Assembly (NCBI RefSeq): GCF_001641695.1
Contig: NZ_LSEF01000113.1
Location: forward strand, 27,498 to 91,497
Length of the DNA: 64,000 bases
DNA from: Bradyrhizobium neotropicale
GTDB taxonomy: Bacteria > Pseudomonadota > Alphaproteobacteria > Rhizobiales > Xanthobacteraceae
Reading direction: 5' to 3'
The first letter of the stretch is position 1. Every line of letters starts with the position of its first letter. This document shows, piece by piece, positions 1-19,723 of the stretch. A program made the translations under genes and the position numbers. A model generated the notes under the pieces. The model was not told the DNA's origin, searched no databases, and worked only from the letters and a program-made list of their open reading frames with translations.

Positions 1-2
1 CC

Positions 3-956
3 GCCGCTGATGCGGCGCAGGCATCGCCGCCCGCAGCCGCACCGGCCGGCGCGGCTGCCGGCTTTGTTGGTGATATCGACGAGTTTCAGATCGCCAAGGT
101 TGCGCGCGCGCCCGGCTTCATCAAGCTCGGCGCGATCGGGCAGGGCCCCGACCAAGCCAAATTGATCACGTTCAGTGTCGACGAGGAAAACGCGGGCTGG
201 TTCAGCGGCGGTTATTTCGGCGTGATCCTTCGCTCGGTGACGCTCGATGGCTGGGTCGTCATCGGCCTGCTCGCGATCATGGCGTTCATCAGCTGGTACG
301 TCATGGTCGATCGCGTCTCTTATCTGAACCGGGTCGCGGCCGGCAATACGATCTTCCTTAAGCATTTCCGCGAGACGTCGACCGACATCGGCGGTCTGCT
401 TCAGCTCGACAGCCAGGAGAACGATCCGAGCTTTGGTGGCGAGCTCGGCAAAAAGCAGCGCAAGGCGGTGCATGCCGCGCCCCTCTATCACCTGTTCGCG
501 GCCGGCGCGCAGGAAATCCGGCGTCGCTTCGCGGGTGGCGGTTATCGCCGATTGTCACCGCAGGCGATCCAGTCGATCCGCGCCGTGCTCGACAGCGGCT
601 TCGTGCGGGAGAACCAGCGCCTCAACCGTCTGATGGTGATGCTGACCATTGCGATCTCCGGCGGTCCGTTTCTCGGTCTCCTCGGTACCGTCGTCGGCGT
701 CATGATCACCTTCGCGGCGATCGCCGCCAGCGGCGACGTCAACGTCAACGCGATTGCGCCCGGCATCGCGGCTGCGCTGGTCGCCACCGTCGCCGGCCTC
801 GGCGTCGCGATCCCCTCGCTGTTTGCCTACAACTACCTGACGATCCGCATCAAGGACGTGAGCAGCGAGATGCAGGTCTTCGTCGACGAGTTCATCACGC
901 GGATCGCGGAGTCCTACGAGCTTCCTGACGAGCCGGTGAAGCAGGCGGCGGAGTGA
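3..956 (+). CDS. LamG-like/ExbB fusion, MotA/TolQ/ExbB proton channel family (5' end outside window)
   Basis: The reading frame is open to the left edge, so the true start lies upstream and the first visible codons are internal. The visible N-terminal part has a short Ala/Pro-rich linker followed by a GDIDEFQIAKVAR segment. That segment resembles the last strand of LamG/concanavalin A-like domains. Three hydrophobic stretches follow (around nt 225-310, 630-720 and 740-840) with the Gly/Pro-rich GGPFLGLLGTVVGVM signature of the ExbB/TolQ core. By family, ExbB forms the inner-membrane proton channel that powers TonB. ExbD begins 4 bp downstream, so the two are almost certainly co-transcribed. 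A periplasmic lectin-like extension on ExbB is uncommon. An internal TTG at nt 162 could be mistaken for the start, but the coding frame clearly runs upstream of it. Confidence 0.85.
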   Translation, partial: AADAAQASPPAAAPAGAAAGFVGDIDEFQIAKVARAPGFIKLGAIGQGPDQAKLITFSVDEENAGWFSGGYFGVILRSVTLDGWVVIGLLAIMAFISWYVMVDRVSYLNRVAAGNTIFLKHFRETSTDIGGLLQLDSQENDPSFGGELGKKQRKAVHAAPLYHLFAAGAQEIRRRFAGGGYRRLSPQAIQSIRAVLDSGFVRENQRLNRLMVMLTIAISGGPFLGLLGTVVGVMITFAAIAASGDVNVNAIAPGIAAALVATVAGLGVAIPSLFAYNYLTIRIKDVSSEMQVFVDEFITRIAESYELPDEPVKQAAE

Positions 957-960
957 ACCG

Positions 961-1365
961 ATGCAAGTCCAGTCCGAAAGCAAGCCGTACGACGACATCA
1001 ACATCACGCCGATGCTCGATCTCGCTTACGTGCTGCTGGTGATCTTCATCATCATGACCACGGCGACCGTGCAAGGCATGAAGGTGAACCTGCCGAAGGC
1101 GAGCGCGGCGCCGAGCCTTGCGCAGCAGACCACCAAGGCGATCACGGTCGCCAATGACGGAAAGCTGTTCCTCGATACGATTCCCGTGACGCTGGCCGAG
1201 CTCGAGCAGCGCCTGGTGCAGCAACGCGCGCTGACGCCGGAGTTTCCGATCGTCGTGCGCGGCGACAGCCAGACCCCGTACCAGAACGTCGTCGACGTGC
1301 TCGATCTGCTCGGCCGCCTGAACTTCACACAGGTCGGCATGGCGACCAAGCCCGTAGCGCGGTGA
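961..1365 (+). CDS. exbD: ExbD/TolR family biopolymer transport protein
   Basis: This 134-residue protein has a single N-terminal transmembrane helix (about residues 20-38), preceded by the DINITPMLD motif. The membrane aspartate, here D20, is the conserved proton-carrying residue of the ExbD/TolR family. The rest is a small periplasmic domain of normal length. It starts 4 bp after the ExbB-like gene and is followed 12 bp later by a TonB-like gene, giving the usual exbB-exbD-tonB order. By family knowledge, ExbD works with ExbB to turn proton-motive force into movement of TonB. The partner set in this locus is a porin-like barrel and a giant exoprotein, not an obvious siderophore receptor. 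Confidence 0.92.
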   Translation: MQVQSESKPYDDINITPMLDLAYVLLVIFIIMTTATVQGMKVNLPKASAAPSLAQQTTKAITVANDGKLFLDTIPVTLAELEQRLVQQRALTPEFPIVVRGDSQTPYQNVVDVLDLLGRLNFTQVGMATKPVAR

Positions 1366-1377
1366 ACCTGACTGCAC

Positions 1378-2103
1378 ATGACGCCGATGGATCAGCGCAG
1401 CAACACCGACGAGAGCGAAGGAGCTGCCTGGTGGCGCTATCTGCTGCTGGGTGGCGGCGGTCTGTTGGTCGTCGTGCTCCTGGTCGGCGGCATCATGGTC
1501 CTGATGAGCGGCGACAAGAACCCGCCGCGCAAGGTGAACGAGCTGCAGGTCACGATGATCATGCCGCCGCCGCCACCTCCGCCTCCGCCGCCGCCTCCAC
1601 CGGAACAGCAGCCCGAGCAGAAGATGGTCGAGCAGACGCCGGTCAAGCAGGAGATGATCGAGGAGAAGCCGGTGGACGTCCCCAAGGACGCGCCGCCGGA
1701 TGCGCCCGACAGTCCGATGGACAGCCCGCCATCGCTCGAAGCCAACACGACCGGGCCGGGCACCTTGAAGGGCGGCAAGGGAGGCTTGATCGGTGGCGGT
1801 GGCGGTGGAGGCGGCGGCGGCGGCAAATGGGGCTGGTACGCCAGCATCGTGCAGGCGCAGATCGAGGCTGCCCTGCGCTCGAACGAGAAGACGCGCCACG
1901 CAGTGATGCGGGTCAGGGTCCGGTTGTGGCCGGACGCCAGCGGCCGGGTCAGCCGCGTGCAGCTGGTGTCCTCGACCGGTAACAGCGAGCTCGACGCGGT
2001 GATCCGCGATCAGATCCTCAGCGGCATGACGTTACGCGAACCGCCGCCCAGGGAAATGCCGATGCCGATCGTGATGCAGGTCACGGCGCGCAGTCCGGGT
2101 TGA
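1378..2103 (+). CDS. TonB-like energy transducer
   Basis: The protein has 241 residues with one transmembrane helix at about residues 21-43. A 13-proline run follows at about 63-75, then an acidic, Pro-rich spacer, a Gly-rich stretch (about 132-148) and a C-terminal TonB fold of roughly 90 residues. That fold contains the usual core in which a residue change accumulates through a VRVRLWPDASG strand. Proline spacers let TonB cross the periplasm, and the glycine hinge is an extra feature. It is the third gene of the ExbB-ExbD-TonB set. Its outer-membrane target is unknown. The next gene is a porin that shows no evident plug domain or TonB box. Confidence in the family is good; the substrate cannot be named. 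Confidence 0.85.
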   Translation: MTPMDQRSNTDESEGAAWWRYLLLGGGGLLVVVLLVGGIMVLMSGDKNPPRKVNELQVTMIMPPPPPPPPPPPPPEQQPEQKMVEQTPVKQEMIEEKPVDVPKDAPPDAPDSPMDSPPSLEANTTGPGTLKGGKGGLIGGGGGGGGGGGKWGWYASIVQAQIEAALRSNEKTRHAVMRVRVRLWPDASGRVSRVQLVSSTGNSELDAVIRDQILSGMTLREPPPREMPMPIVMQVTARSPG

Positions 2104-2171
2104 GGCGACGGCGGGACGGCGACAGCCGTCCGCGTAAATGAGTGAGAGAGACTGGAAGAAGGGTTGATGTC

Positions 2172-4034
2172 ATGTGGCGTGCAGAGATGACGAAGCGACA
2201 ACTGGCGGGGAGCGCGGCGATCCTGCTTGCGCTTTCTGTTCCCGCGTCGGCCCAGGACGATACTCAACCGGTCAAACGCCCAACGGTCTCGCGCAACGCG
2301 CCGCCGTCGTCCAACGCGACCGTCAACCTGATCAATCTGCTGGTGAAGCAAGGCACGCTCAGCGAGGAGCAGGCGGCAGCGCTGATCAAGCAAGCGGACG
2401 GCGAGGCCTACGTCGCCCGCCAGGCCACGCGTGATGCCACGGCGAAGGCGGAAGGCGCCGAGAAGGCTGCGACAACTGCAACGGATGCGGTCTCGCCGCC
2501 CGGCACCAAGCGCGTCACTTATGTCCCAGAGATCGTCAAGAAGCAGCTGCGCGACGAGATCAGGGCGGAAGTGATGGACCGCGCCCACAAGGAGGGCTGG
2601 GCCCAGCCGGGCGCGCTGCCGGACTGGATCTCGCGCATCCGGTTCTATGGCGACGTGCGCGTGCGGCACGAAAGCGATTTCTTCCCGAAAGGCAACGCGG
2701 TTGGCTTTTTTCCGAACTTCAATGCCATCAATACCGGCAGTCCGTTCGACGTCAGCGATTTGAGTAATCCGAACACCTATCCGTCCTACAATGTGGATCA
2801 GGATCGGCATCGTGAACGGCTCCGCGCGCGTTTGGGCATGGAAGCCGAGGTCTTCGACGGATTCTGGACCGGAATGCGGATCGCGACCGGCGACAACAGC
2901 GGTCCGGTCTCATTCAACCAAACAATGGGAGGCTCGGGCGGAAACTTCAGCAAGTACGCCATTTGGCTGGATCGTGCCTATATCAGATATAGCCCCACGA
3001 ATGAGATGACGCTTAGTGCGGGGCGGTTCGACAATCCGTTCTTCACTGCGACGGATCTCGTATACCACCGTGATCTCGGCTTCGATGGCTTCGCCGCACA
3101 AGGACGCTACGAGGTAGAGCCGGGTATTACGCCCTTTGTGGTCGCTGGTGCGTTCCCGATCTACAACACGACATTCGACGTTGGTGCACAACTCGCGTCG
3201 GATGGCACGAACGCCACGTTCGGTAAACTGCCGAGCCGTGACAAGTGGATGTTCGGTGCGCAGGTTGGCGGCAATTTCAGGCCTCAGCCCGAGATTGAAC
3301 TCACCGTGGGTGCCGCCTTCTATGACTTCAGTAACGTCCAGGGCAAGGTTTCGAGCCAATGCTATGTCTATAGCGTTCAGGACCTGTGCGACACAGACTT
3401 GTTGCGCCCGTCATTCGCACAAAAGGGCAATACCTACATTCCGCTGCGAAGCATCGTGCCGACGGTGTTCAATAGTCTTGGCACCCAGTTCCAATACCAG
3501 TATTTCGGCCTCGCATCGGCGTTCCAGGACGTGGATTTGAGCGCCCGCCTGGATCTTGGTCACTTCGATCCGATACACATCATCCTCGACGGCGAATACG
3601 TGCGCAACGTCGCATGGAATCGCAATGATATCGCTGCAAAACTGCTCAATGCGGGCACTTTCATCCCGAATAACGGCTTCGTGCCTCTTGGGCCGACAGC
3701 GGCCTGCGCAAGTCTTCCTTGTCCTCAAGTATACGAGGGCGGAAATCAAGGCTGGCTCGCGCGCCTGTCGGTCGGCCATCGAGAGTTGAAGCAACTTTGG
3801 GATTGGAGCGCGTATGTCGGTTACAAGTATCTCGAGTCCGACGCCGTGCTCGACGCCTTCGCCGACTCCGATTTCGGGCTCGGAGGAACCAATCTCAAGG
3901 GCTATTTCATAGGTGGGAATCTCGCGCTGTCGTCGAACGTCTGGCTGACGGCGCGCTGGATGAGTGCGAACCAGGTCGCTGGTGCGCCTTACGCGGTAGA
4001 CATCTTCCAGTTCGATCTCAATGCGAGGTTCTAA
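2172..4034 (+). CDS. Putative outer-membrane porin (Porin_5-like)
   Basis: I place the start at ATG 2172, which has a GAAGAAGGG ribosome-binding site 8 bp upstream. This yields a 620-residue precursor with a signal peptide ending near ASAQ. The mature N-terminus carries a short helical segment, NLINLLVKQGTLSEEQAAAL, then an Ala/Lys-rich coiled-coil stretch. These precede a long beta-rich part with alternating aromatic strands such as RIRFYGDVRVRHE, and a terminal phenylalanine (NARF), typical of outer-membrane barrels. The layout matches the putative porin family PF16930 as I know it. No POTRA domain or TonB-receptor plug is apparent. It follows the TonB gene and its stop overlaps the next start, so it may be the outer-membrane component of this locus. 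Confidence 0.8.
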   Translation: MWRAEMTKRQLAGSAAILLALSVPASAQDDTQPVKRPTVSRNAPPSSNATVNLINLLVKQGTLSEEQAAALIKQADGEAYVARQATRDATAKAEGAEKAATTATDAVSPPGTKRVTYVPEIVKKQLRDEIRAEVMDRAHKEGWAQPGALPDWISRIRFYGDVRVRHESDFFPKGNAVGFFPNFNAINTGSPFDVSDLSNPNTYPSYNVDQDRHRERLRARLGMEAEVFDGFWTGMRIATGDNSGPVSFNQTMGGSGGNFSKYAIWLDRAYIRYSPTNEMTLSAGRFDNPFFTATDLVYHRDLGFDGFAAQGRYEVEPGITPFVVAGAFPIYNTTFDVGAQLASDGTNATFGKLPSRDKWMFGAQVGGNFRPQPEIELTVGAAFYDFSNVQGKVSSQCYVYSVQDLCDTDLLRPSFAQKGNTYIPLRSIVPTVFNSLGTQFQYQYFGLASAFQDVDLSARLDLGHFDPIHIILDGEYVRNVAWNRNDIAAKLLNAGTFIPNNGFVPLGPTAACASLPCPQVYEGGNQGWLARLSVGHRELKQLWDWSAYVGYKYLESDAVLDAFADSDFGLGGTNLKGYFIGGNLALSSNVWLTARWMSANQVAGAPYAVDIFQFDLNARF

Positions 4035-4630
4035 TGATGCGGCGCTTGGGACTTTCTCTGATTGCTTTGTCGGCGCTCGCGATCGCCACCACCGCGCACG
4101 CGGACCAGGAAGGCGATCGCCTGCGCGAAGCGCTGCGTACCGCCACCGCGCAGGCGAGGGCGGCGGAAGATCAACGCGCCGCGCTCCAGGCCAAGCTGAC
4201 ATCGGCCGAGCAGGAGCGTGACCGTCTGCGCAAGCAGAGCGAGGCGTATCGTGCCCAGGTCAAGGAAGCGGAGCAGGCCTATCGCCAGGCGGTGAAGGAC
4301 TTCAACGAACGTCTCGGCGAACGCGACGATTCACTGGAGAAGTGGAAGACCGCCTATGGCGAGGCGGCCAGCGTGGCGCGCGCCAAGGATGCCGAGCGCG
4401 CCAAGTTCGAAACCGAGGCGACCGCGTTGAAGGCGAGCACCAAGGCCTGCGAAGCCAAGAACGTCCGGCTTGCGAAGATCGCCGACGAAGTCGTGACCAA
4501 ATATGAGGCGATGGATCCGTTCGAGAAGGTTCTCGACCACGATCCGGTATTTGGATTGAAGCGGGTCGAGCATCAGAATGCGGCCCAGGACTTCCGTGAC
4601 AAGATCCTCGAACAGAAGGCCAAGCCATGA
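4034..4630 (+). CDS. Periplasmic coiled-coil protein of unknown function
   Basis: The ATG at 4034 overlaps the porin stop by one base (TAATG). A second ATG follows directly at 4037. The 198-residue product has a signal peptide (MMRRLGLSLIALSALAIATTAHA) and is then almost entirely charged heptad-like sequence rich in Ala, Glu, Arg and Lys. It contains no recognisable enzymatic motif. I do not recognise a family. Its position between the porin and the parvulin, with overlapping ends on both sides, indicates translational coupling. A structural or chaperone-like role in the periplasm is therefore plausible, for example bridging TonB and the porin, but this is inference only. Confidence 0.8.
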   Translation: MMRRLGLSLIALSALAIATTAHADQEGDRLREALRTATAQARAAEDQRAALQAKLTSAEQERDRLRKQSEAYRAQVKEAEQAYRQAVKDFNERLGERDDSLEKWKTAYGEAASVARAKDAERAKFETEATALKASTKACEAKNVRLAKIADEVVTKYEAMDPFEKVLDHDPVFGLKRVEHQNAAQDFRDKILEQKAKP

Positions 4631-5646
4631 CCAGCCATGCACTTAAGACCGTTGTACTCGCGGGCGCGCTGTTCGCTGCCACTTCGTCCATGGCCATGGC
4701 TCAAACCCGCAATCAGCCGCAGCCTGCACCGGCACGCCCCGCACCTGCGGGAGCCGCTCCCGTGCGCCCGACAGCCAGCGAGGATGCTTCGGCGATCAGG
4801 AGCGGCGAGGTGATTGCGCGGGTCGGCGACAGTGACGTGACCGCGGAGGAGGTGCGTGCGACGATCCAGCTTCTGGATGCGCGTCAGCAGGCCGCGATGG
4901 CGCGTGATCCGGCCCTGCTCAGCCAGACTGTGCGGGCGATCCTCGCCAATCGCCTCGTGCTCAAGGAGGCGTCGGCCAAGAAATGGGAGCAGCAGCCCAC
5001 CGTCGTCGCCCAGCTTGCGCGCGCGCGCGAAAGCCTGATCGTCGAAACCTATCTGCAATCCGTGACCGCGCCGCCCGACAGCTTTCCGAGCGAGGCGGAG
5101 GTCAAGAGCGTGTATGAGGCAAATGCCAGTGCTCTTCTCGTCCCGCGCCGTTTCCGGCTTGCGCAGATCGTGGTGGCGGTGCCGAAGGACGCGGACAAGG
5201 CCGCCGAGGACATCGCGCGAAAGAAACTCGAAGATGTCATGAAGAAGGTCAAGCAGACAGGCGCGGATTTCGGCGCGATTGCGCGCAGCGCGTCCGATGA
5301 TACCGCGTCCGCCGAGCGCGAGGGCGAGATCGGCTGGGTCAACGAGCCGGACCTTCGGACCGAAATTCGCGGTCAAGTCACCGGATTGCCGAAATCGGGC
5401 ATCACCGATGCAATCCGGCTCGATGATGGCTGGCACATCGTGAAGCTGGTGGATACCGAGGCTGCGCATACGCGGTCGTTTGCGGAAGTGAGGGATGCCC
5501 TGGTCCAGCGCATGCGAGCGGAGCGCATCGAAGCCAATCGCCGCGCCTATGTGGCGGAAGTGCTCAAGCAATCCCCACCTGTCGTGAACGAGATCGCGCT
5601 CTCCAAACTGCTGGAAGCGAAGCCCGACTCTACGTCGTCACGCTAG
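4627..5646 (+). CDS. Parvulin-type peptidyl-prolyl isomerase, periplasmic
   Basis: The gene overlaps its upstream neighbour by 4 bp (ATGA). The 339-residue product has a signal peptide ending near AMAQ, a Pro/Ala-rich linker and a helical SurA-like N-terminal chaperone region (about residues 60-155). A PpiC/rotamase domain follows (about 165-280), with the family segments RRFRLAQIVVAV, GEIGWV and DGWHIVKLVD. By family, such proteins escort unfolded outer-membrane or secreted proteins through the periplasm. Here it is the last gene before a hairpin terminator and the giant exoprotein. That placement makes a chaperone role for the exoprotein or for the porin likely, though not shown. Confidence 0.88.
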   Translation: MTSHALKTVVLAGALFAATSSMAMAQTRNQPQPAPARPAPAGAAPVRPTASEDASAIRSGEVIARVGDSDVTAEEVRATIQLLDARQQAAMARDPALLSQTVRAILANRLVLKEASAKKWEQQPTVVAQLARARESLIVETYLQSVTAPPDSFPSEAEVKSVYEANASALLVPRRFRLAQIVVAVPKDADKAAEDIARKKLEDVMKKVKQTGADFGAIARSASDDTASAEREGEIGWVNEPDLRTEIRGQVTGLPKSGITDAIRLDDGWHIVKLVDTEAAHTRSFAEVRDALVQRMRAERIEANRRAYVAEVLKQSPPVVNEIALSKLLEAKPDSTSSR

Positions 5647-5672
5647 GCCTGCGTTCTGTCCGAATGGTCCCG

Positions 5673-5709
5673 GCCGAGTTGCGCGACAGCGCAGCTCGGC
5701 TGCTATTTT
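5673..5709 (+). terminator. Rho-independent terminator after the exbB-to-parvulin operon
   Basis: Two 12-bp arms, GCCGAGTTGCGC (5673-5684) and GCGCAGCTCGGC (5689-5700), pair with one G-T contact around a GACA loop. They are followed by TGCTATTTT. The hairpin sits 26 bp after the parvulin stop and separates the operon from the giant exoprotein gene. Confidence 0.75.
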
Positions 5710-5959
5710 GCGCTCCGTGGAACAGTAGAGGCGGACCCCGGAATATCGTTGTTCCCAAGCGGCAATTGATCACCTGCGACCTTAGAACCTTTGTTCCGGT
5801 CGCCGATATCGTTAATCGTTAGTTAAATATCATATATGTGTAACAGTTTATGTGATACCCGAGACGCGCGTTGCGTGCTCTCAGCGGCGGCCGCGAACCG
5901 GCTGGTGCGGCCCTGTCAGCCGCCCTAAGCAACGCCCCGTTCCCGCTGGAGTGCGCCTC
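5710..5959 (+). promoter_or_regulatory. Leader and probable promoter region of the giant exoprotein gene
   Basis: This 250-bp space between the terminator and the proposed GTG start contains a distinctly AT-rich block (about 5805-5855) in an otherwise GC-rich window. The contrast is typical of a promoter. I cannot assign exact -35/-10 boxes. A GGAG sequence at 5948-5951 lies 8 bp before GTG 5960 and supports that start over an upstream in-frame ATG at 5852. Confidence 0.4.
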
Positions 5960-11900: not shown

Positions 11901-14900
11901 CGGTCGATGCGGGCCGCATCGCTGTCGTTGCGCAGCAAACGCTTCTTCTCGGTGCCACCGAGCTGAGCGCGCCCGCCGCAGGAGGACGTGGCGGCGAGCT
12001 CGATATTTCCAGCGACAAGCTGGCCGTGCTGAGCTCCAGCGTCAACCAGCAGCCGTACACGGCTGCCGGCTATGTCGTGGTGGCGAGCGAGCAGCTCGCG
12101 AGCTTCGAAAGCGTGCTGATCGGTGGACTGCGCAGCGATACGTCGAAGGGCACGCTGATCACGGGAACTGCGTCTGAGCTCGTGGTCGATACGCCGGATG
12201 GCTTGTCGCTTCCAGAGTTCATGTTCGTGACGAGCCCGCTGAGAACGACGCAACAGACTGTCTCGTCGTCGTTCCAGGTCAACATGAACGGCAATTGGCT
12301 CGACGGCACCTCCCAGTTCACCGCCACGGTGCCGAAGGGCACCGGCACCATCTCGATCGCGACTGGCAGCGTGATCACGACCAGCGGGAACGTTCATACC
12401 GGCGCCGGACGCAACTTCTATGTCGGCTCGAATCCGAGCGGCAGCACCACGGCACAGCAAGTGGCGACGGCTCTCGGAGGAACGCTGGATTCCACCGGCG
12501 CCGTCATCACGGGCGCCGATGTCAACAAGCTACCCGTCAGCGTTCCGGGGATAGGCTACAACAACAACCCGTCCACAGCCGTGTTGTCCAGCTATGCCAG
12601 CCAGGGCCTCGGTGCCCTGTTTGTCGCGTCTCAGGATTCGACGATTTCTGTCGCGGGACCCTCAGCATCACCGCTGACGATCCAGTTCACGACGCTGGCG
12701 GGCAGCAACAATCTGGTGCGCAACGCCGATGGCAGCAGCGGTCCGGCCACGATCACCTTGGGCGGCAATGTCGGTCATGTCGAGATCGAGGCGGGCGCGC
12801 ATATCTCGACCAACAACCTGTTCATCCAGGCAACGGCAACCACCAACAACATCATCCTCAACAAGCCGGTCGCGGGCAATCCCAACGCGCCGGCCGCCAC
12901 CATCACCGCGAACCAGGCAAAGTTCGCGGGTCGCAGCATCGGGATCGGGGCGAGCTCGAGCGACGGCGTGATCCTGAATCAGACCAATCTGGATCAGCTC
13001 TCGGGTGTGAAGAATCTGACGCTCGCCGCAGTCGGGGGTGACATCACGTTCTACGGCTCCAATCTGATCCAGGCGACAATGCAGGGGCTGACGTTAGATG
13101 CGCGTGCAGTCAGGGGGACTGGCGGCAATAGCACGATCGAGGTCGGCGGCACCGTGACGCTGCTCAACAGCAGCGCGACCGGCACATCGGCGCAGGCGAG
13201 CCCGAGCGGAAGTCTCGGCATCGCCGCAACCGACATCGTATTCGGCGGCGGCACCCAGACGATCGCAGGATTCTCGCAAGTGAACCTCGCTGCCAGTGAC
13301 CAGGTCCTGTTCAAGAGCCAGGGCTCGCTGAGGCTCGGGACCGGAAGCGACGTGGACGGTCTCCCGACCGACGTGGTCGGTCTCCAGATGATCACGCCGC
13401 TGGTTTCGGTCGGCGGCAGCACCTCGAAGGGCGGCGGATCGTTCGTCGTTGTCACCTCCGGTGCCGTCAACATCGGCGACACCATCGTCAATCCCAACAA
13501 CCCGCCGGTCCGGTCCGATTCGCCCAAGGACAGCAGTGACACCGGCGGCAGCCTGATGATCCAGGGCAGGAGCGTCAGCATCGGCGGCTTTGCCGATGAT
13601 CAGGGCAATCAGCGTTCGGGCACCGTCATCCAGGCGCAGGCCGGTTCGATCACGCTCGAGGCGACGAAAGGAGACGTGACGCTCGACCACAACGCCTATT
13701 TGTCGGCGCGCGGCTACGCCAAGAACCTGATCGACACGGCAACCTATCTCCCTGGTGGAAAAATCGTGCTGAAGGCCGATCGCGGCAACGTCGTCACACG
13801 CGGCGTCAGCGCTTCGGCCAAGGGCAACGACGCCAGCGTGATCGATGTGGCGCAGCCGGATGGTGGCATGGGCTATGGCGGACAGGTCCGGATTCTCGCG
13901 ACCGCCGGTCAGGCGACCGTGCTCGGGGACCTCCGTGGCAAGGGTGGCAACGGTCTCGGCGGCGGTATCCAGATCGACACCAACAGTCTCCAGGTCGACG
14001 GCAGTGGCTTCACGCCCGAGGTGGCGCTCGATCCGCTGGCGGACAAGTTGCTGGCGGGCGGCTTCACCGGTGCAGTCGACATCCACACCCGGACCGGCGA
14101 CCTGATCCTGTCCCAGGGACACACACTCAAGGCCAACTCGGTCACGCTCACGGCGGATGACCAGACGTGGGACACCACCGACCCGACGAGGCAGTTCGGA
14201 CGCATCGTCATCGCCGGCACGATCGACGCCAGCGGCTATGCGGGCAGAACGGCTGACGGCACCGGGCAGGCGGGTGGACAAGTCAACCTTTACGCCGCCA
14301 ACGAGATCACCCTGACGGCGACGGGGCTCATCAACGCATCCACCGAGCACGGCGATGAACGCGGCGGCGACGTGACGATCGCGATCGGCTGGGGCACCAA
14401 GAGCAACGCAGGCATCGACCTTCAGCCGGGCTCGCGCATCGACGTCCATGGCGGCACCAAGGGCGGGTTGAGCGGCGGGACGGTCCTGGTCCGTGCACCG
14501 AACGACGGCGGCAACGACGTCTACATCACGGAGATCGCGTCGACGATCACCGGCGCCCGCGACGTGACGATCGAGTCCTTCGTCAGCTTCAGCACCAACG
14601 GCCAGGGCGGTATCGATGCGTCCTCGCTCGGGTGGAACGGCGTGCTCGATCCGGGCGGCTCGGTGACGAAGACGAGCCTGAAGGTCAACACGGTGTATGT
14701 GCCTCCGGGCAGCGGTGGGGCGTACACCCAGGTTCCCGACGTGATATTCTCCGCGCCTGCGACGTCCGTGACCGGGCTCAAGAGCATTTCGATCGCCTCG
14801 ACGAGCAACTGGTATCACCTCGATCCCAATCTAATCGGCGAAGTCGTGATCGAGGCGCCCGCGGGCGGCACCGCCGCAAGCGGCATCGTGACGACCGACG

Positions 14901-17900
14901 CGAACGGCGTTCCCACGTTCACCATCACCAATCCGGGCAGTGGCTTCACCGGCGCGCCCGCGACGATCCGCTTCTACAGCCAGGGCGTTCTTCTCACCAC
15001 CGCGCACCTGACGAGCAGCGACTTCGCCAGCGCGCAGTTGACGACGACGGCCGGCCAGGCCCAGGGCACTGCGGTGATGGGGCTCAAGAGCATCTCGATC
15101 GCCTCGACCAGCGGCTGGTATCATCTCGATCCCAATTTTGCAGGCAATGTGGTGATCGAATCCGCGTCGGGCGGCGCTTCGGCGACCGGAACCGTGACGA
15201 CGGACGCGAATGGCGTTCCGACCTTCACCATCATCGGCGCCGGCAGCGGCTTTACGGGCGCGCCTTCCACCATCCTGTTCTATCGCGACGGCAAGCTCAT
15301 TCTCACCGGGCATCTGACGAGCAGCGATTTCGCCAGCACCGTGATGACGGTCGTCGGCGTCAATGTGACGAATGCCGGCAACTACACCCCCGGCACGGCG
15401 GCCACCGCCAGCTTCTCGGGCGGCGGCATCGGCGCGACGGAGGCTGCTTCGGTCGCGGCGGACATGGATACGGCCGCGGCGACGGGCTCGGGGGCCTTTG
15501 CCGCCGTGACGCTGCGGCAATATGTGCAGGGCAATTGGACCTACAACACCAACACCGAAGTCAAGCACTACGGTTTCAGCGGTGCGATGGATCGGATCGT
15601 GAAGCCGCTCGCCGGCGAGCTCGGTTCGGTGGTGCATCTGCGGCCGGACGTCGACCTCGTCAATCCGGATCCGACCATCAACGGCGGCAACATCACCGTC
15701 GCCAGCAACTGGAATCTGGCGGCCGGCACCGTCGGGAAGCTGCAGAACAACACCGGCTCTCTGGCGGGGACCCAGTACTTCGATCCCAGCATCAGTTACG
15801 TCGATTTTGCCTACCGCTATCTGGCGAACTACGGAAGTGCGGACGTGCCGAGCTACGGGGTCGAAGCCGGCGCACTGACGCTGCGCGCGTTCAACAACAT
15901 CAACGTGAACGCCTCGATCTCCGATGGGTTCTTCCAGTTCGGGGATTATCTGAACCCGATCTACCGGAGCGCCGTTTCGGCCTATCTCCGCAGCGCTACC
16001 CCGCGGGGAATCGACGGCAATAATGGTGCCAACTTGAACAACTACAAGCCGGCTCCAATCGCGCCGTACAATACGACTGGAAATCCCAACGGCATCAGCG
16101 CGAGTGCGACCGACCTCGACGAAGCGGACCTGTTCCCGCACACGCTGAATGTCTGCATCAGCCATTGTGGTGCCGACTCAGCGCCGGATGGTCTGGCTGC
16201 GATCACCAATCCCGGCTCGTGGTCCTACCGTCTGACGGCCGGCGCCGAAATCGGGAGCGCCAATCCAAACGCGATGCAGTCGCTCGCAAGCGTGAACAAG
16301 CGCGGTGCCGGGGACGTCGTCGTGAACGGGCACGTCCTGGCCACGACCATCGCACCAAACCTCAATCTCCCGACCATGGTGCGGACCGGCACCGGCAGCA
16401 TCTCGATCGCGGCCGCGCGCGACGTCAGTCTCGCCGATACCGCCGCGCCGGGCGTCATCTACGCTGCGGGCGTGAACACGGCCCGATACGCCAATCCCTA
16501 TGATGCGTCCGGCAATGTGACGGATGCCAACGGCTTCCTCGAGCCGCAGCTGTTGAGCTATGGCAGCAATACGCAGGGCGGCGCGGCACTAGTCTACGGC
16601 GCGCCGACCAGCGCAGCATTTCCGGTTGCTGCGGGTGACGTGTCGGTCGTCGCGCAGGAGGACATCAAAGGGTACAGGAATGTCACGACAACGAACATAT
16701 TCAATCAAACCACCCTGTGGAATGCCTACTATACGCCTTGGCTCATCGCCGATGCTGGAGTGACGAACTTGGTCGGCGCACCGACCGTGGGCGCCGGCGT
16801 GTTCGTTTCCAGCGACCGCATTGCATCCCAGACCGCCTGGTGGATTCAGTACGCCAGCTTCCGCGAGGGCATTCTTTCGGCCGGTGGCAACGTCAACGTT
16901 ACGGCAGGACGCGATCTGGTCGACGTCTCGGTCTCGCTGCCCACGACCGGGCGGGTCACTGGCGGGCTTTCTTCGGCGAGCACGCCGGTGACCCAGCTCT
17001 ACGGTAGCGGCAACATGATGGTGCGGGCAGGCCGCAATCTGCTGGGCGGTTCGTATTACGAAGGCTCGGGGCACGCAAGCATCCAGGTTGGCGGCCTCGT
17101 GGATGCGAATGGCACAATCACGCTCAAGGCGGCCAATACGACGGCGCCCAACTATACACTGCTTGCGGTGGACACTGGCCAGATCAGCATGATCTCAGGC
17201 GGATCGATGGCGATCGGCGGCGTGGTCAACCCCGCCCAGTTGCATCTTCAGTCAACCACGGCGGCCAATCCCTTGGGTGCGGCGAGCAGCCTTCTCATGA
17301 ACACCTACGGGCAGGACAGTGGCGTGAACCTGACCGCGGTCACCGGAAATCTGAATATCGCGATGCCGCAGACGTTCGGTACGGTCCCCTGGAACACCTC
17401 CGGTTTGACCTACCCGGCGAGTTTCACGGCCATCGCTGCGGGCGGGGACATCACCACAAAGGGACTCGTGACCAATTCAACCGTAGGGGCCCAGAATCCT
17501 GCCATGCCCGGCATCGTCCTGACCGGATCGGAGAATGGCAGGTTTGAGCTGCTCGCGCAGGGCAGCATCGATCTGACCGGCGGCTATACCAATCTGGCCA
17601 CGTTCGCGCCGTCTATTTCGGCGGGGCCGTCGCTGCTCGACACGGCGTTCGATCCCTACCAGCCCAACAACGGCATGACAGGCGCCTTCAGTTCGGCGTT
17701 GCTGGCGCACCGGGACGACCACGATACCAACCCTGCGCGCATCTACGCGGTGTCGGGCAACATCTCGGCGGTAGCGACCACGAGCAGCACGGTTAACCGG
17801 ATTCCGGGTACGAGCACGATTGTCTCGGTCACGCCGACGTCGTACGCGAGAGTCGAACTCAACCGTCCGGCGAAGATCTATGCCGGCCGCGACATCCTCA

Positions 17901-19723
17901 ATCTCAACCTCATCGCCCAGAACATCGCAGCCGACGATGTCACCACGATCCAGGCCGACCGCGACATTCTGTACAATTACGGCGGCGGAACGGCAAATGT
18001 GAACAACCAGGCCGTGACCTTTGGCGGACCGGGACTGCAGATCGCGGGGCCGGGATTCCTGGTGGTACAGGCCGGCCGCGATCTCGGACCGTTCCTGCCC
18101 GTGACGCGCGACAGCATCACATACACACCGGCCCAGGAAGGTATCGCCTCGGTCGGCAACGCCAGCCTGTGGCCGGTCGGCAACCGATATGTCAGCCAGG
18201 GCTCGAGCGGCATGTACGACATAACGCTGCTCGGCTCCGTCAGCTCAACCACGAAAAAGCGCAACGAGCTGCTGCCCGGCACCGGAGCCGACATCATCAC
18301 CATGTTCGGCGCCGCCAAAGGCATCAATTACGACGGTTATTGGGCCAAGGATCCCAACACCAATCAGCTTGTCCTTCACCCCGGCGTGATTTCCACCTAT
18401 CTCGATCCGGCCAACGCCTCGAACGTCGCGCAAAATTACGCCTTCAATACAGATGCGCTTCGGAGCTATCTGAAGAGCGACGCGCTGTTCGACTTCTTTA
18501 ACACCCCGGCCGGTCGAGCCACGCTGAAACAGGCGAACATCAATGCTTTGAAGGGCGATGGTTCAATCGATCGTGCTGGTCTGAATCAGTACTTTGATCT
18601 TCTAGCGCGCCCGTGGGATTTCTTTGCTAATGCGCTGCCGCAGCAAATTCAGAACGGGTTCGTCGATCTCGGCGCCTTCTTGCTGCGCATCGGTTTACGT
18701 CCCGAAAATCAGGCCAGCGCGTTGGCGGATTTCTACGCCTTGCCGAAGGATCTCCAGCACGTCTTCGCCGACCAGGTGTTCTTTGCCGAGCTCAAGGCCG
18801 TAGGCCAGGCGCAGACCGGAACGTCCGGCAACTACCAGCGCGGTTACGAGGCGATCAACACGATGTTCCCGGCGGACTTCGGCTACACCCGGAACGCGCT
18901 GGGCGGCGGCACCAACGGCGCGAATACGCTGAAGCATACCGGCGACCTCGATCTCCTGCACGCGACGATCCAGACCAAGCTCGGCGGCGACATCTCGATC
19001 TTCGGTCCGGGCGGGACGATCCGCGTCGGCTCGCTCGCGCTCGAGCCGAACCCGCTGCTCAAGCCGAACGATCTCGGCATCCTCACGCTCGGTGTTGGCG
19101 ACATCAACACGTTCACGGATGCCAGCGTGCTGGTGAACTCAAGCCGGGTCATGACCCAGCAGGGCGGTGACATCCTGATGTGGAGCTCGAACGGCGACCT
19201 CGACGCCGGCCGCGGCGCCCAGACGACGCTGTCGTTCCCGCCGTTGCAGGTCGTGTTCAACTCCGACGACTATCAGAGCGTCGATCTCGGCGGCCTCGTC
19301 AGCGGCGCCGGCATCGCCGTGATCCAGAGCTCGAAGGTTGCGAAGAAGTCCAACACCTATCTGCTCGCGCCGCGCGGCACCGTCGACGCCGGCGAAGCGG
19401 GTATCCGGGTGTCGGGCAATCTGACGATCGCGGCCGTGCAGGTGGTTAATGCCGGCAACATCCAGGTGGGCGGCACCTCCACCGGCATCCCGACGGTTAC
19501 AGCCCCGAATATCGGCGCGCTCAGCGCGGCCTCGAACACGGCCGGCGCCGCGGCCAAATCGGCAGAACCGCCGACGGCTGCGGGCAACAATGATCGTGCC
19601 TCCGTCTTCATCGTCGAGGTGGTCGGCTACGGCGGCGGTGACACTGGTGGTCAGGACTCCAACCCGTCCTCAAGCAGCGGACAGGGGACCAAATCCGACG
19701 ATCAGGAACGCAAGCAGCCGTAA
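5960..19723 (+). CDS. Giant filamentous haemagglutinin-family exoprotein (TPS secretion domain)
   Basis: From GTG 5960 the product has about 4,587 residues. It begins with a basic segment and hydrophobic signal (RSIRAALLTSTAILPGLIG), then an Ala/Gln-rich coil (about residues 45-100). A two-partner-secretion haemagglutination-activity domain follows (about 150-260), with NWETFNIGRN and NRNGIIFGPGAQVNVHALIASS motifs. The rest is thousands of residues of Gly/Ser/Thr/Asn-rich beta-helix-like repeats, and the C-terminal tail is Ser/Gly/Gln-rich. By family these are secreted adhesins of the FHA/HMW type. I noticed only two C-x3-C pairs (nt 6341-6355 and 16153-16167). A 90-residue module is duplicated in tandem near nt 14774. 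No TpsB transporter is adjacent; the upstream operon has TonB/ExbBD and a porin instead. The C-terminus may match the FHA-associated DUF3739, which I could not check. Confidence 0.9.
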   Translation: MNIDLKSSAFSLRWRSIRAALLTSTAILPGLIGHQAQARSLTPSNSSVAPATAAQLAAGLAAQQAAAAGAQAQVSLARAAAALSAARQAQQDAAAAAAQALNSTVNGVVTGGLMPIGGVKDVTGQSACGDSCSSLQLNTPTSWQNANTTFTQTVKNGQYTVDITQTQNRAILNWETFNIGRNTSVKFEQKSADWTVLNRVTDPTGSPTQILGQMSALGGVYVINRNGIIFGPGAQVNVHALIASSLDVGALGLPQDKRDKYFINTGINNANVTAFSVAPTHSPGFGSPDDGGYTAENNGWGDVKVNAGASIKTSVVDLESTGFIYLFGRNVSNSGTLTSPAGEVALVAARSISLISGGYWKLPSAVLPTGVTYRGTDFQITHFADVYSPDGNAIAPNYATGTGLISNDGLIETPRGITQMNGDRITIGQTGIISADTGITRNSMVLLRAATGIDLEGTISALPYEDPLTPSLPQGGSRGSTVQSFAPAYVELSAQNSVTVGSSGLISAPSATVALRAIDLGNGLPNAPSLYTNSTTNTLFGSPGVPGAVKASVTGPQQVLLEDGATIDVAGLQNVVLPASYNFIPFKPTGNEVADMPLQRSFLPGQTFYIDIRASGTRSDGTTWVGTPVADASGTINSYGRSIQQLMTTGGVVSLQTDQIATDSSTTSRSVITQSGSVINVAGGTVKYLPGMVSTTKLLGADGRIYSMANADPNMVYLGIAGQFTVNHSHWRVKEIWSTATQIYQPGYAEGHDAGGINITTVSPQLQGQMYFGSAAGERQISLGLKPSATNGVTATQAKGDELPSQGYLTFNLASSVVIGTSTDSTSGGLGVTNQIRHIADVPDPSQFAPAVAGADFTPTSAYQTVLSAATLSSYGLSLLRINSNDLLVTHNSANDAAGLPDLSLAAGGTFSATTGSAISVAGNIGAAGGQISLVTDGFAFRNNPFFKAAQTASGKDDIFVQGTLDVSGRWVNDTGRFGTGMTGPGYIDGGSISIATNTNSDGTVDTTGSILLAQGSLLDASSGGYISSTGIAKTASTGVLAGRGGSVSLLLYQGKRYDVQGATGPATPTAGNVAQLQLDGRLRAYGFERNGTLTLGTGKTITIDSTAHADASSGIVTSTGGAGMTAVTLAASRLTDGGFGAYVIESTPDGWTDTNAVIAVAAGVNLTLQQQNLASLADYRAVGTGSKIADAATRARLPDDQRNVVDLTLKSDNILLDTGAVIATDPQAKVSFGGIPNYTVSDPTREQAAQNVLLRGRVIDHGGTVVVNAQKTWLGPQAKVDVSGTFVANSRFGQPKGQLVSGTVLSGGTFTIEAAAPNVQVGTLANTYTPGTVPSGTYVVAEQGAVVDVSGYATSIQAQNGHGGAVTVQSWSDAGTVKIDAAAFVWAGTFEAKGGRSADGKTPLANGGTLMLGGGAMQLQQDSANVTAALSGTLAGGPATLANLASNSSSLVNQLASASGTSSSIFAAVDRLSAFENVLLYSGTAQNGVARIFTGVSGNTYAIAAPTLSPLAISGSVTWTSDDGLSRLYIAANTISSTTSGSTVTLAAPYMLLTGGGGSTSTAGSSLHLGFRTKAGDPTSDVIIARTIDIENAAFAGFNDIELKSSGDIRLSTPKVANGFTSGGTSTDAARFTGQIAAGGANLILDAQRIYPVSDVDFTIQTTGNVTFQATAGGRSVIPLSAGGSLSVYAATIDQNGNIYAPLGRITLGDDGTATGNTSKIQTTSVTLEPGSLTSVTLAGTIVPYGETVDGVNWYYNASLHPLLAAASGTEPVLPSKGLVLNGNNVAVKQGSTIDTRGGGDLQAMEWTPGKGGSRDTLTTTPSGQTVYALIPSYNDPVAAYDIHFATTRSDGGQNFKAGDAYPLAGQQIHLDGSTGVPAGTYTLYPAHYATLPGALRVVDYGSNLGRNIPSGTTLPDGTVLVSGHYTQSVRPGAYSSGSELFAVQSNSVWRQYSEYNFSTANGYFTDKANHDGVAIPRLPVDAGRIAVVAQQTLLLGATELSAPAAGGRGGELDISSDKLAVLSSSVNQQPYTAAGYVVVASEQLASFESVLIGGLRSDTSKGTLITGTASELVVDTPDGLSLPEFMFVTSPLRTTQQTVSSSFQVNMNGNWLDGTSQFTATVPKGTGTISIATGSVITTSGNVHTGAGRNFYVGSNPSGSTTAQQVATALGGTLDSTGAVITGADVNKLPVSVPGIGYNNNPSTAVLSSYASQGLGALFVASQDSTISVAGPSASPLTIQFTTLAGSNNLVRNADGSSGPATITLGGNVGHVEIEAGAHISTNNLFIQATATTNNIILNKPVAGNPNAPAATITANQAKFAGRSIGIGASSSDGVILNQTNLDQLSGVKNLTLAAVGGDITFYGSNLIQATMQGLTLDARAVRGTGGNSTIEVGGTVTLLNSSATGTSAQASPSGSLGIAATDIVFGGGTQTIAGFSQVNLAASDQVLFKSQGSLRLGTGSDVDGLPTDVVGLQMITPLVSVGGSTSKGGGSFVVVTSGAVNIGDTIVNPNNPPVRSDSPKDSSDTGGSLMIQGRSVSIGGFADDQGNQRSGTVIQAQAGSITLEATKGDVTLDHNAYLSARGYAKNLIDTATYLPGGKIVLKADRGNVVTRGVSASAKGNDASVIDVAQPDGGMGYGGQVRILATAGQATVLGDLRGKGGNGLGGGIQIDTNSLQVDGSGFTPEVALDPLADKLLAGGFTGAVDIHTRTGDLILSQGHTLKANSVTLTADDQTWDTTDPTRQFGRIVIAGTIDASGYAGRTADGTGQAGGQVNLYAANEITLTATGLINASTEHGDERGGDVTIAIGWGTKSNAGIDLQPGSRIDVHGGTKGGLSGGTVLVRAPNDGGNDVYITEIASTITGARDVTIESFVSFSTNGQGGIDASSLGWNGVLDPGGSVTKTSLKVNTVYVPPGSGGAYTQVPDVIFSAPATSVTGLKSISIASTSNWYHLDPNLIGEVVIEAPAGGTAASGIVTTDANGVPTFTITNPGSGFTGAPATIRFYSQGVLLTTAHLTSSDFASAQLTTTAGQAQGTAVMGLKSISIASTSGWYHLDPNFAGNVVIESASGGASATGTVTTDANGVPTFTIIGAGSGFTGAPSTILFYRDGKLILTGHLTSSDFASTVMTVVGVNVTNAGNYTPGTAATASFSGGGIGATEAASVAADMDTAAATGSGAFAAVTLRQYVQGNWTYNTNTEVKHYGFSGAMDRIVKPLAGELGSVVHLRPDVDLVNPDPTINGGNITVASNWNLAAGTVGKLQNNTGSLAGTQYFDPSISYVDFAYRYLANYGSADVPSYGVEAGALTLRAFNNINVNASISDGFFQFGDYLNPIYRSAVSAYLRSATPRGIDGNNGANLNNYKPAPIAPYNTTGNPNGISASATDLDEADLFPHTLNVCISHCGADSAPDGLAAITNPGSWSYRLTAGAEIGSANPNAMQSLASVNKRGAGDVVVNGHVLATTIAPNLNLPTMVRTGTGSISIAAARDVSLADTAAPGVIYAAGVNTARYANPYDASGNVTDANGFLEPQLLSYGSNTQGGAALVYGAPTSAAFPVAAGDVSVVAQEDIKGYRNVTTTNIFNQTTLWNAYYTPWLIADAGVTNLVGAPTVGAGVFVSSDRIASQTAWWIQYASFREGILSAGGNVNVTAGRDLVDVSVSLPTTGRVTGGLSSASTPVTQLYGSGNMMVRAGRNLLGGSYYEGSGHASIQVGGLVDANGTITLKAANTTAPNYTLLAVDTGQISMISGGSMAIGGVVNPAQLHLQSTTAANPLGAASSLLMNTYGQDSGVNLTAVTGNLNIAMPQTFGTVPWNTSGLTYPASFTAIAAGGDITTKGLVTNSTVGAQNPAMPGIVLTGSENGRFELLAQGSIDLTGGYTNLATFAPSISAGPSLLDTAFDPYQPNNGMTGAFSSALLAHRDDHDTNPARIYAVSGNISAVATTSSTVNRIPGTSTIVSVTPTSYARVELNRPAKIYAGRDILNLNLIAQNIAADDVTTIQADRDILYNYGGGTANVNNQAVTFGGPGLQIAGPGFLVVQAGRDLGPFLPVTRDSITYTPAQEGIASVGNASLWPVGNRYVSQGSSGMYDITLLGSVSSTTKKRNELLPGTGADIITMFGAAKGINYDGYWAKDPNTNQLVLHPGVISTYLDPANASNVAQNYAFNTDALRSYLKSDALFDFFNTPAGRATLKQANINALKGDGSIDRAGLNQYFDLLARPWDFFANALPQQIQNGFVDLGAFLLRIGLRPENQASALADFYALPKDLQHVFADQVFFAELKAVGQAQTGTSGNYQRGYEAINTMFPADFGYTRNALGGGTNGANTLKHTGDLDLLHATIQTKLGGDISIFGPGGTIRVGSLALEPNPLLKPNDLGILTLGVGDINTFTDASVLVNSSRVMTQQGGDILMWSSNGDLDAGRGAQTTLSFPPLQVVFNSDDYQSVDLGGLVSGAGIAVIQSSKVAKKSNTYLLAPRGTVDAGEAGIRVSGNLTIAAVQVVNAGNIQVGGTSTGIPTVTAPNIGALSAASNTAGAAAKSAEPPTAAGNNDRASVFIVEVVGYGGGDTGGQDSNPSSSSGQGTKSDDQERKQP
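14774..15349 (+). repeat. Tandem duplication of a roughly 100-residue module inside the giant exoprotein
   Basis: Two adjacent in-frame units start at GLKSISIASTS: unit 1 at 14774-15079 (102 codons) and unit 2 from 15080. Aligned by eye, about 65 of the first 90 residues are identical. Shared blocks include WYHLDPN, TTDANGVPTFTI, GSGFTGAP and HLTSSDFAS. The divergence shows the duplication is not recent. It stands out from the irregular beta-helix repeats around it and could be a separate folded module. Confidence 0.85.

What the first reader, a model, noticed from the sequence alone, without database searches (positions are those of the whole stretch)
3..19723. TonB-ExbBD-powered locus beside a giant FHA-type exoprotein: candidate undescribed secretion or display system
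Six co-directional, tightly spaced or overlapping genes (LamG-like/ExbB fusion, ExbD, TonB, porin, periplasmic coiled coil, parvulin) end at a terminator, and a 4.6-thousand-residue TPS-type exoprotein follows. The classical system needs only a TpsB barrel with POTRA domains, not TonB energy. A dedicated TonB set with a plugless porin and chaperones next to the exoprotein suggests a different, energised route for export, assembly or release.
Basis: partly seen in the sequence, partly recalled or inferred. Interest (0 to 1): 0.75.

Follow-up and report, generated by a model that had tools for sequence, protein, structure and literature searches.

The report
Secretion locus with dedicated TonB motor
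A bacterial gene cluster that encodes a giant surface protein and its standard two-partner exporter also encodes its own proton-powered TonB motor and a porin; the pairing is known but unexplained, held in every sampled genome that could be checked, and hints at a powered form of a secretion route thought to need no energy.

Summary
Directly upstream, abutting the ExbB gene, lies a TpsB/FhaC-type exporter with POTRA and ShlB domains. The gene set is also in print: P. aeruginosa pdtB-exbB2-exbD2-tonB4-PA0696 (porin)-PA0697-PA0698-PA0699 (PpiC), its TonB genes called "still uncharacterized".

The TonB set is not incidental. Of 397 genomes of the phylum, 19 have the exoprotein family (DUF3739); 18 have the DUF2341 of the ExbB fusion, all within those 19; full-length Porin_5 is in exactly the same 19. 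In 140 further genomes with TPS domains DUF2341 was not found. Twelve genomes hold 47 exoproteins but 12-13 hubs. The exoproteins end in a flexible tail with one conserved strand motif (51 of 52 loci; 25 of 25 in Pseudomonas).

Best reading: a TPS subtype with an obligate TonB/Tol-type motor hub acting on the periplasmic end of the exoprotein or on its exporter. The coupling is inferred, not shown.

The parts
1..956 (+). C-terminal part of the DUF2341-LamG-ExbB fusion (whole protein 647 aa; gene begins about 1 kb upstream of the window, directly after the TpsB gene at L005:732-2510)
961..1365 (+). ExbD/TolR-like protein; the Asp of its membrane helix is kept in 30 of 36 hub picks (the other 6 picks were wrong-frame stretches and were not re-picked)
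1378..2103 (+). TonB-like protein: hydrophobic N-terminal segment, Pro- and Gly-rich spacer, TonB_2 C-terminal domain
2187..4034 (+). Porin_5: signal-peptide-like start, helical stalk, predicted 16-strand barrel without plug; best structural match is the OM attachment porin OmpM1 (start codon is my choice)
4034..4630 (+). coiled-coil protein with a signal-peptide-like start (position of PA0697)
4627..5646 (+). PpiC/SurA-type prolyl isomerase, presumably periplasmic (position of PA0699)
5671..5702 (+). terminator-like hairpin at the end of the hub genes
5960..19723 (+). giant TPS exoprotein (open frame from 5852, 4623 aa; likely start GTG 5960, about 4587 aa, followed by a signal-peptide-like stretch; my reading)
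6383..6712 (+). TPS secretion domain of the exoprotein (aa 178-287)
19163..19495 (+). DUF3739 domain (aa 4438-4548)
19604..19633 (+). conserved tail motif VFIVEVVGYG (aa 4585-4594) in a predicted disordered tail

Best explanation
It is a Pdt-type two-partner secretion locus with an obligate proton-powered accessory hub. The upstream TpsB barrel exports the giant exoprotein (family evidence strong; export itself not tested here). ExbB/ExbD turn the proton gradient into movement of TonB, as in TonB and Tol systems (inferred from family). The hub serves every DUF3739 exoprotein of the cell in trans (inferred from copy numbers). The most likely point of action is the periplasmic end of the exoprotein: its flexible C-terminal tail, presumably last to leave, carries one conserved strand motif that could dock on the TonB C-terminal domain by strand addition, so that the motor holds, pulls or releases the surface fibre. 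The stalked porin would hold the hub at the outer membrane, and PpiC would act as chaperone. Locus identity and dedication of the hub: about 0.95. TonB acting on tail or exporter, rather than on nutrient uptake: about 0.5. Tail motif as the TonB site: about 0.3.
For: TpsB abuts the hub. DUF2341 is in 18 of 19 DUF3739 genomes, 0 of 140 other TPS genomes and 0 of 238 genomes without TPS; the 19th (G230) has the ExbB end of the fusion at a contig start. Full-length Porin_5 (>390 bits) is in the same 19 and no other; 8 more genomes have partial matches of at most 129.3 bits. In 32 DUF3739 genomes there are 67 exoproteins, 35 DUF2341 loci and 33 Porin_5 genes; 12 multi-copy genomes hold 47 exoproteins, 12 DUF2341 loci, 13 porins and 12 full-length hub TpsBs. 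Tail motif in 51 of 52 DUF3739 loci (50 distinct tails) and 25 of 25 Pseudomonas exoprotein ends, against 9 of 7253 other open frames of the same loci; the one miss has a readable variant. Tail predicted disordered. At two hubs and beside one exoprotein an STN protein ends in a TonB_2 domain, the VreA design known from P. aeruginosa, so a TonB-type domain seems to have a second user in this system.
Against: No interaction was tested; complexes could not be predicted here. The tail motif could bind something else (POTRA, coil protein, PpiC) or be a plain secretion or stability signal. The pattern was drawn from 40 of these tails, which overlap with the 52 loci. In P. aeruginosa pdtA and pdtB are described as a functional TPS system, and transposon mutants in tpsA, tpsB, the tonB homologue PA0695 or PA0696 all left VreI-induced zebrafish virulence unchanged, so nothing seen in print shows that tonB4 is needed for export. 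ExbB-ExbD-TonB triplets without porin or TpsB beside them make up 4 of 36 loci. No STN-TonB gene was found in the window or 20 kb around its start. All hub ExbBs examined lack the Glu that TolQ has in this helix, so the motor may not work exactly like TonB/Tol motors. In the 119-genome family sample the hub families were searched only in the DUF3739-positive genomes.
Confidence: 0.5

Rival explanations
1. TonB energises the export step itself by acting on TpsB, for example by freeing its barrel or the POTRA domains, which would help move chains of more than 3,200 residues.
For: TpsB directly precedes ExbB in most loci; one hub TpsB in G438 accompanies nine exoproteins (a second, weak TpsB match is elsewhere in that genome); the exoproteins are 3,295 aa or longer, apart from one of 1,988 aa whose frame is open at the contig start.
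Against: TPS exoproteins of similar size exist without the hub (one search lists frames of up to 29,206 aa); no TonB-box-like motif stood out before the POTRA domain in the TpsB alignment, only a variable Ala/Pro linker (by eye, half of the rows shown).
Confidence: 0.2
2. A nutrient-uptake set: the exoprotein is a capture arm on the surface and TonB powers entry through the porin, as HxuA/HxuB work with the TonB-dependent receptor HxuC.
For: The P. aeruginosa locus is induced by phosphate starvation; HxuABC is a precedent for TPS with TonB-dependent uptake; the phosphate porin OprP and the related OprO are among the best structural matches of the porin.
Against: No plug or TonB-dependent receptor domain in the hub proteins; the porin model has 16 strands and helices, no plug (low confidence); one porin accompanies many exoproteins.
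Confidence: 0.13
3. A second Tol-Pal-like envelope machine: motor, TonB and stalked porin tie the outer membrane down where giant fibres are anchored; no direct contact with the exoprotein.
For: ExbB and ExbD score best against TolQ and TolR and ExbB is nearest to solved TolQ; the porin's best structural match is OmpM1, an outer membrane attachment porin (VIA-align 2 Z 25.7, rmsd 2.6 over 296 residues; next other entries 20.4 and 20.0); ExbB carries a LamG-like domain that by analogy lies in the periplasm.
Against: TolQ and TolR models are not reached at their cut-offs (131 of 221 and 91 of 127 bits); no Pal or TolB family among the hub proteins; no SLH domain found in the porin; porin model confidence is low (mean pLDDT 52.9).
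Confidence: 0.14
4. Neighbourly arrangement only: the TonB genes have an unrelated function.
For: None found beyond the lack of a direct test; extra exoprotein copies often lie away from the hub.
Against: Near-perfect co-occurrence in 397 genomes, also inside one genus (in the window's genus 2 of 11 listed genomes have the three families and 9 have none).
Confidence: 0.03

Closest known systems
Pdt/PUMA3 locus of Pseudomonas aeruginosa (PA0690-PA0699: PdtA, PdtB, ExbB2, ExbD2, TonB4, porin PA0696, PA0697, YbjN PA0698, PpiC PA0699)
   Same: Same gene order and same protein kinds by the published table (PMC7035377, passages); another Pseudomonas (G127, matching a contig of Pseudomonas sp. GM50) has DUF3739, DUF2341-ExbB, full Porin_5 and the tail motif.
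   Different: Here the exoprotein lies downstream of the hub; no YbjN or STN-TonB gene was found around it, and of a VreR-like FecR only a 96-aa frame beside the ECF sigma gene. The P. aeruginosa sequence itself was not compared.
Classical two-partner secretion (FhaB/FhaC, HMW, CdiA/CdiB; type Vb)
   Same: TPS domain in the exoprotein, POTRA_2 plus ShlB barrel in the exporter; CdiB and FhaC are solved relatives of the exporter.
   Different: TonB-ExbBD-porin-PpiC hub, DUF3739 and tail motif; the passages seen of the 2017 TPS review (PMC5422565) describe secretion without classical energy sources and name PdtA without a TonB hub (TonB occurs once in its text, for HxuC).
HxuA/HxuB/HxuC of Haemophilus influenzae
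   Same: TPS pair with a TonB-linked partner in one operon (review passage).
   Different: HxuC is a TonB-dependent receptor; here there is a porin without plug and a complete dedicated motor.
Tol-Pal and TonB-ExbBD motors
   Same: ExbB/TolQ, ExbD/TolR and TonB/TolA-type proteins.
   Different: DUF2341-LamG fused to ExbB; the Glu of the TolQ stretch APGIAEAL replaced by Ala/Gly/Ser in 36 of 36 and by Ala in 80 of 80 homologues.
OmpM1 attachment porin of Veillonella
   Same: Best structural match of the barrel; OmpM1's stalk with SLH domain is recalled.
   Different: No SLH domain found; sequence identity 18-19%.

Membership tests
Two-partner secretion (type Vb) | TPS domain near the N terminus of the exoprotein | tested here: met
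   PF05860 1e-19 and TIGR01901 9e-20
Two-partner secretion (type Vb) | TpsB partner: POTRA plus FhaC/ShlB barrel encoded in the same locus | tested here: met
   POTRA_2 1.2e-14, ShlB 3.6e-20, gene abuts the ExbB fusion
Two-partner secretion (type Vb) | Exoprotein actually exported by this TpsB | not testable with these tools
   needs a tpsB deletion and surface assay
Pdt-type locus (P. aeruginosa PA0692-PA0699) | Order TpsB-ExbB-ExbD-TonB-porin-coil-PpiC | tested here: met
   against the published table, (YbjN missing here)
Pdt-type locus (P. aeruginosa PA0692-PA0699) | Control by VreI-type ECF sigma, FecR-like VreR and STN-TonB VreA | tested here: inconclusive
   ECF sigma gene at L004:15766-16425 next to TpsB; directly behind it a 96-aa frame matching FecR at 9e-13, about a third of the query's length; no STN-TonB gene in L004 or the window; rest of the genome not searched
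Pdt-type locus (P. aeruginosa PA0692-PA0699) | Sequence relation to PdtA and PdtB themselves | not tested
   no P. aeruginosa sequence was fetched; relation rests on other Pseudomonas species
TonB-dependent receptor uptake system | Plug domain and 22-strand receptor barrel | tested here: not met
   no plug or receptor family in the seven window proteins or TpsB; porin model with 16 strands, low confidence
Tol-Pal system | TolQ and TolR at equivalog cut-off, TolB and Pal present | tested here: not met
   TolQ 131 of 221 bits, TolR 91 of 127 bits; no TolB or Pal family among the hub proteins
TonB-ExbBD motor | Asp in the membrane helix of ExbD (its role is recalled) | tested here: met
   30 of 36 picks; the other 6 picks were wrong-frame stretches, not re-picked; present in the window's ExbD
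TonB-ExbBD motor | Glu in the stretch APGIAEAL as in TolQ (its role in ExbB is recalled) | tested here: not met
   Ala 34, Gly 1, Ser 1 of 36; Ala 80 of 80 in Pseudomonas

The most novel reading that the evidence does not exclude
A type V secretion subtype powered by the proton gradient: a TonB/Tol-type motor is mechanically coupled to giant two-partner exoproteins through a universal C-terminal tail motif, one motor hub handling up to nine different exoproteins per cell, to finish their export, hold them, or move and release them on the surface.
Probability: 0.3. Interest if true: 0.82.

Novelty: new variant of a known kind. Interest (0 to 1): 0.6.

Why it matters
Two-partner secretion is described as proceeding without classical energy sources (review passage). 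A branch of it that in this sample is never found without its own proton-driven motor, porin and chaperone-like genes would change that picture, and would suggest a function for exbB2-exbD2-tonB4 and PA0696-PA0699 of P. aeruginosa, which are called uncharacterised or of unknown or putative function in print. The conserved tail motif makes the idea testable with short peptides and point mutants.

Tried and rejected
Considered and rejected: an exporter-free, purely TonB-driven route (a TpsB lies just upstream); classical TonB-dependent uptake (no plug); chance neighbourhood; the hub as a general TPS accessory (DUF2341 in 0 of 140 TPS genomes that lack DUF3739).

Led nowhere or stayed weak: a TonB-box-like motif in the N-terminal parts of TpsB and porin (by eye, no clear candidate); the helical stretch between signal peptide and TPS domain of the exoprotein is common but missing in several members (every second row shown); the C-terminal model of the exoprotein has mean pLDDT 48.2 and was not searched against structures; no solved relative for the porin or the exoprotein end by sequence (0; one hit at E 0.32, taken as chance). 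Papers: no paper in the library holds the word DUF3739; six hold DUF2341 (listing), of which only PMC12505986 was opened, in passages, and names DUF2341 only as a domain of unknown function on ExbB-like proteins. Searches bearing on a function of the TonB hub (listings; passages read of PMC2729926, PMC4971064, PMC7035377, PMC5422565) showed none; subscription papers such as the 2014 PdtA paper cited in those passages were not looked up.

Limits: genome counts ignore relatedness; the 19 positive genomes fall in 16 genera. The sample is 397 of a larger group. In one search the two DUF3739 stretches of one G146 frame were counted once. In one search one of 41 loci (L135) was dropped because its longest frame was not the exoprotein. 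In one search loci L028 and L031 are one gene and both are counted in the 52 (50 distinct tails); most of the 40 tails come from the same genes. My ExbD profile also picked wrong-frame stretches. One hub TpsB match (G174) runs over a stop codon. A first count by longest frame (32 strict and 38 relaxed of 52) picked wrong frames in some short loci and was replaced. The output was cut in its middle. The PF05860 table does not list all matches.

Full report
1. What is there. Pfam gives MotA_ExbB, ExbD, TonB_2, Porin_5, a coiled coil without a trustworthy family, PpiC rotamase, and a 4,623-aa frame with an N-terminal TPS domain and a C-terminal DUF3739 domain. The exoprotein probably starts at GTG 5960 rather than 5852, after a Shine-Dalgarno-like GGAG and before a signal-peptide-like stretch (my reading of the sequence). 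A hairpin with a 14-pair stem lies between PpiC and the exoprotein (5671-5702).

2. What the window edge hid. The window is G000:C113:27498-91497. In the fetched upstream DNA the ExbB gene is complete: 647 aa, DUF2341 and a LamG-like domain, then ExbB. The base before its ATG ends a 592-aa gene with POTRA_2 (1.2e-14) and ShlB (3.6e-20): a TpsB/FhaC exporter. A profile of 16 such TpsBs finds CdiB and FhaC, among five solved relatives. The genome has a single DUF3739 match; a second ShlB match lies on another contig (C33).

3. The gene set is in print. The P. aeruginosa locus near vreAIR (PUMA3) contains pdtA (PA0690), pdtB (PA0692), exbB2, exbD2, tonB4 (PA0693-0695), PA0696 'putative outer membrane porin', PA0697 'structural homology with channel-forming colicins', PA0698 (YbjN) and PA0699 (PpiC); [quoted passage not shown] One promoter transcribes phdA, pdtB, exbB2D2, tonB4 and PA0696-PA0701 (PMC4971064, passages). 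[quoted passage not shown] I did not compare the P. aeruginosa sequence itself. G127, whose hub contig has the length of a Pseudomonas sp. GM50 contig and whose ExbB fusion matches it at 100%, gives the bridge: it has the same hub, a DUF3739 exoprotein and the tail motif. A scan with its ExbB fusion found 224 relatives in named genomes; the 80 kept are all Pseudomonas. Of these 80 loci 77 show TpsB-ExbB-ExbD-TonB-Porin_5-coil-PpiC in order, 25 of 80 with the exoprotein end directly upstream. Of the other three, two end early (L150, L155, at a contig end by the ranges) and one (L164) has no PpiC match.

4. The hub is dedicated. Of 397 genomes sampled across the phylum, 19 have DUF3739, 18 have DUF2341, all inside the 19, and 159 have a TPS domain. 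DUF2341 is thus in 0 of 140 TPS genomes without DUF3739 and 0 of 238 genomes without TPS. The 19th genome, G230, has the ExbB end of the fusion at the start of a 3,770-base contig, so its DUF2341 part is probably in an assembly gap. Full-length Porin_5 (over 390 bits) is in the same 19 genomes and no other; 8 further genomes have only partial matches of at most 129.3 bits. Hypergeometric P for DUF2341 with DUF3739 is about 3e-30, and about 8e-23 within TPS genomes; these ignore relatedness. In the window's own genus 2 of 11 listed genomes have all three families and 9 have none, so the set seems gained or lost as a unit.

5. One hub, many exoproteins. Adding 16 positive genomes out of 119 of the window's family (three are shared), 32 genomes hold 67 DUF3739 exoproteins, 35 DUF2341 loci (in 31 of 32) and 33 Porin_5 genes (in 32 of 32). 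Twelve genomes with two to nine exoproteins hold 47 of them, with 12 DUF2341 loci, 13 porins and 12 full-length hub-type TpsBs. Six further weak matches (under 85 bits) of the TpsB profile are probably other TPS exporters. Of 36 ExbB-fusion loci (35 plus G230), 27 including the window's have TpsB directly before ExbB, 5 have ExbB-ExbD-TonB-porin without TpsB beside it (one of them the cut G230 contig), and 4 are bare ExbB-ExbD-TonB triplets.

6. A shared tail. Behind DUF3739 and a low-complexity linker, the exoproteins carry one conserved strand, in the window VFIVEVVGYG. A pattern drawn from 40 tails matched 34 of them strictly, and the other 6 show readable variants; it had no match in the remaining 156,034 residues of the same proteins. 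A slightly wider pattern matches 51 of 52 DUF3739 loci, largely the same genes, and 25 of 25 Pseudomonas exoprotein ends, against 9 of 7,253 other open frames from the same loci. The miss, L007, reads LKVELLGFG. The tail is predicted disordered (residues 323-400 of the model under pLDDT 50). An isolated conserved strand in a variable flexible tail is what a docking site can look like; that TonB is the partner is inference, resting on the TonB gene in each hub and on TonB binding by strand exchange as described in the 2009 paper.

7. Other parts. The porin has a helical N-terminal region and 16 predicted strands (mean pLDDT 52.9; most strands 70-90). Its best structural match is OmpM1, an outer membrane attachment porin (Z 25.7, rmsd 2.6 over 296 residues), above OprB (20.4) and OprP (20.0). 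ExbB is nearest to TolQ, but the Glu that the three TolQ sequences shown have in APGIAEAL is Ala, Gly or Ser in 36 of 36 hub ExbBs and Ala in 80 of 80 Pseudomonas ones; that this Glu matters in E. coli ExbB is recalled. Among 41 loci clustered, FecR-like frames occur in 11, ECF sigma in 9 and YbjN in 7 (one member of each checked in Pfam). At two hubs and beside one G230 exoprotein an STN protein ends in a TonB_2 domain, the design of VreA, which was modelled in 2009 as an STN lobe plus a TolA/TonB-like lobe. The window's genome has the ECF sigma gene next to TpsB and, behind it, a 96-aa frame matching FecR (9e-13), much shorter than the 325-aa query; no YbjN or STN-TonB gene was found in L004 or the window.

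8. How it most likely works. Shown by family, order and co-occurrence: TpsB exporter, TPS substrate, a complete TonB/Tol-type motor and porin that go together, with coil and PpiC genes in most hubs. Inferred: TpsB exports the exoprotein; the motor acts in trans on all exoproteins of the cell; the point of action is the periplasmic tail (or TpsB). The tail model explains why extra exoproteins need no extra hub and why they keep the tail. Rivals are a motor acting on TpsB, uptake through the porin, and a Tol-like tether; none is excluded. In print, single mutants in tpsA, tpsB, the tonB homologue or PA0696 did not change the zebrafish phenotype, so no genetic result that I saw speaks for or against.

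9. Verdict. Observation confirmed; interpretation partly supported. The locus is of a published type (hence no claim to a new gene set). I file it as a variant of two-partner secretion because its tie to a proton-driven hub, tested here by co-occurrence, is not described in the papers and searches named in Tried and rejected. The function is untested and worth testing.

Noticed in passing
L004:4932-7298 and 9350-10980 (G000:C113, about 6-12 kb upstream of TpsB): A type II secretion-like cluster (GspD secretin, N-methylated pseudopilin-like protein, T2SS protein K) lies upstream of TpsB, recalling the Hxc type II system beside pdtA in P. aeruginosa.
   Followed up: partly
L004:15555-15842 and 15766-16425 (minus): ECF sigma factor gene divergent from TpsB, followed by a frame of only 96 aa that matches FecR (9e-13; query 325 aa), perhaps a shortened or decayed anti-sigma gene.
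   Followed up: partly
window 300-953 (ExbB part): Glu of the TolQ stretch APGIAEAL replaced by Ala in nearly all of this hub family, which may mean an altered ion path.
   Followed up: partly
L083, L085, L090, L091: Bare DUF2341-ExbB-ExbD-TonB triplets away from porin and TpsB in four genomes; their partners were not studied.
   Followed up: no
L069:11232-11828, L071:1317-1880 and similar: Small proteins after PpiC, with signal-peptide-like starts, that match the hub TonB profile but reach no TonB family in Pfam (two checked).
   Followed up: partly
L004:3961-4731 (minus): Hint_2 domain protein beside the secretin gene.
   Followed up: no
G390:C1:290030-290788: Open frame of 29,206 residues with a TPS domain in another genome.
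   Followed up: no
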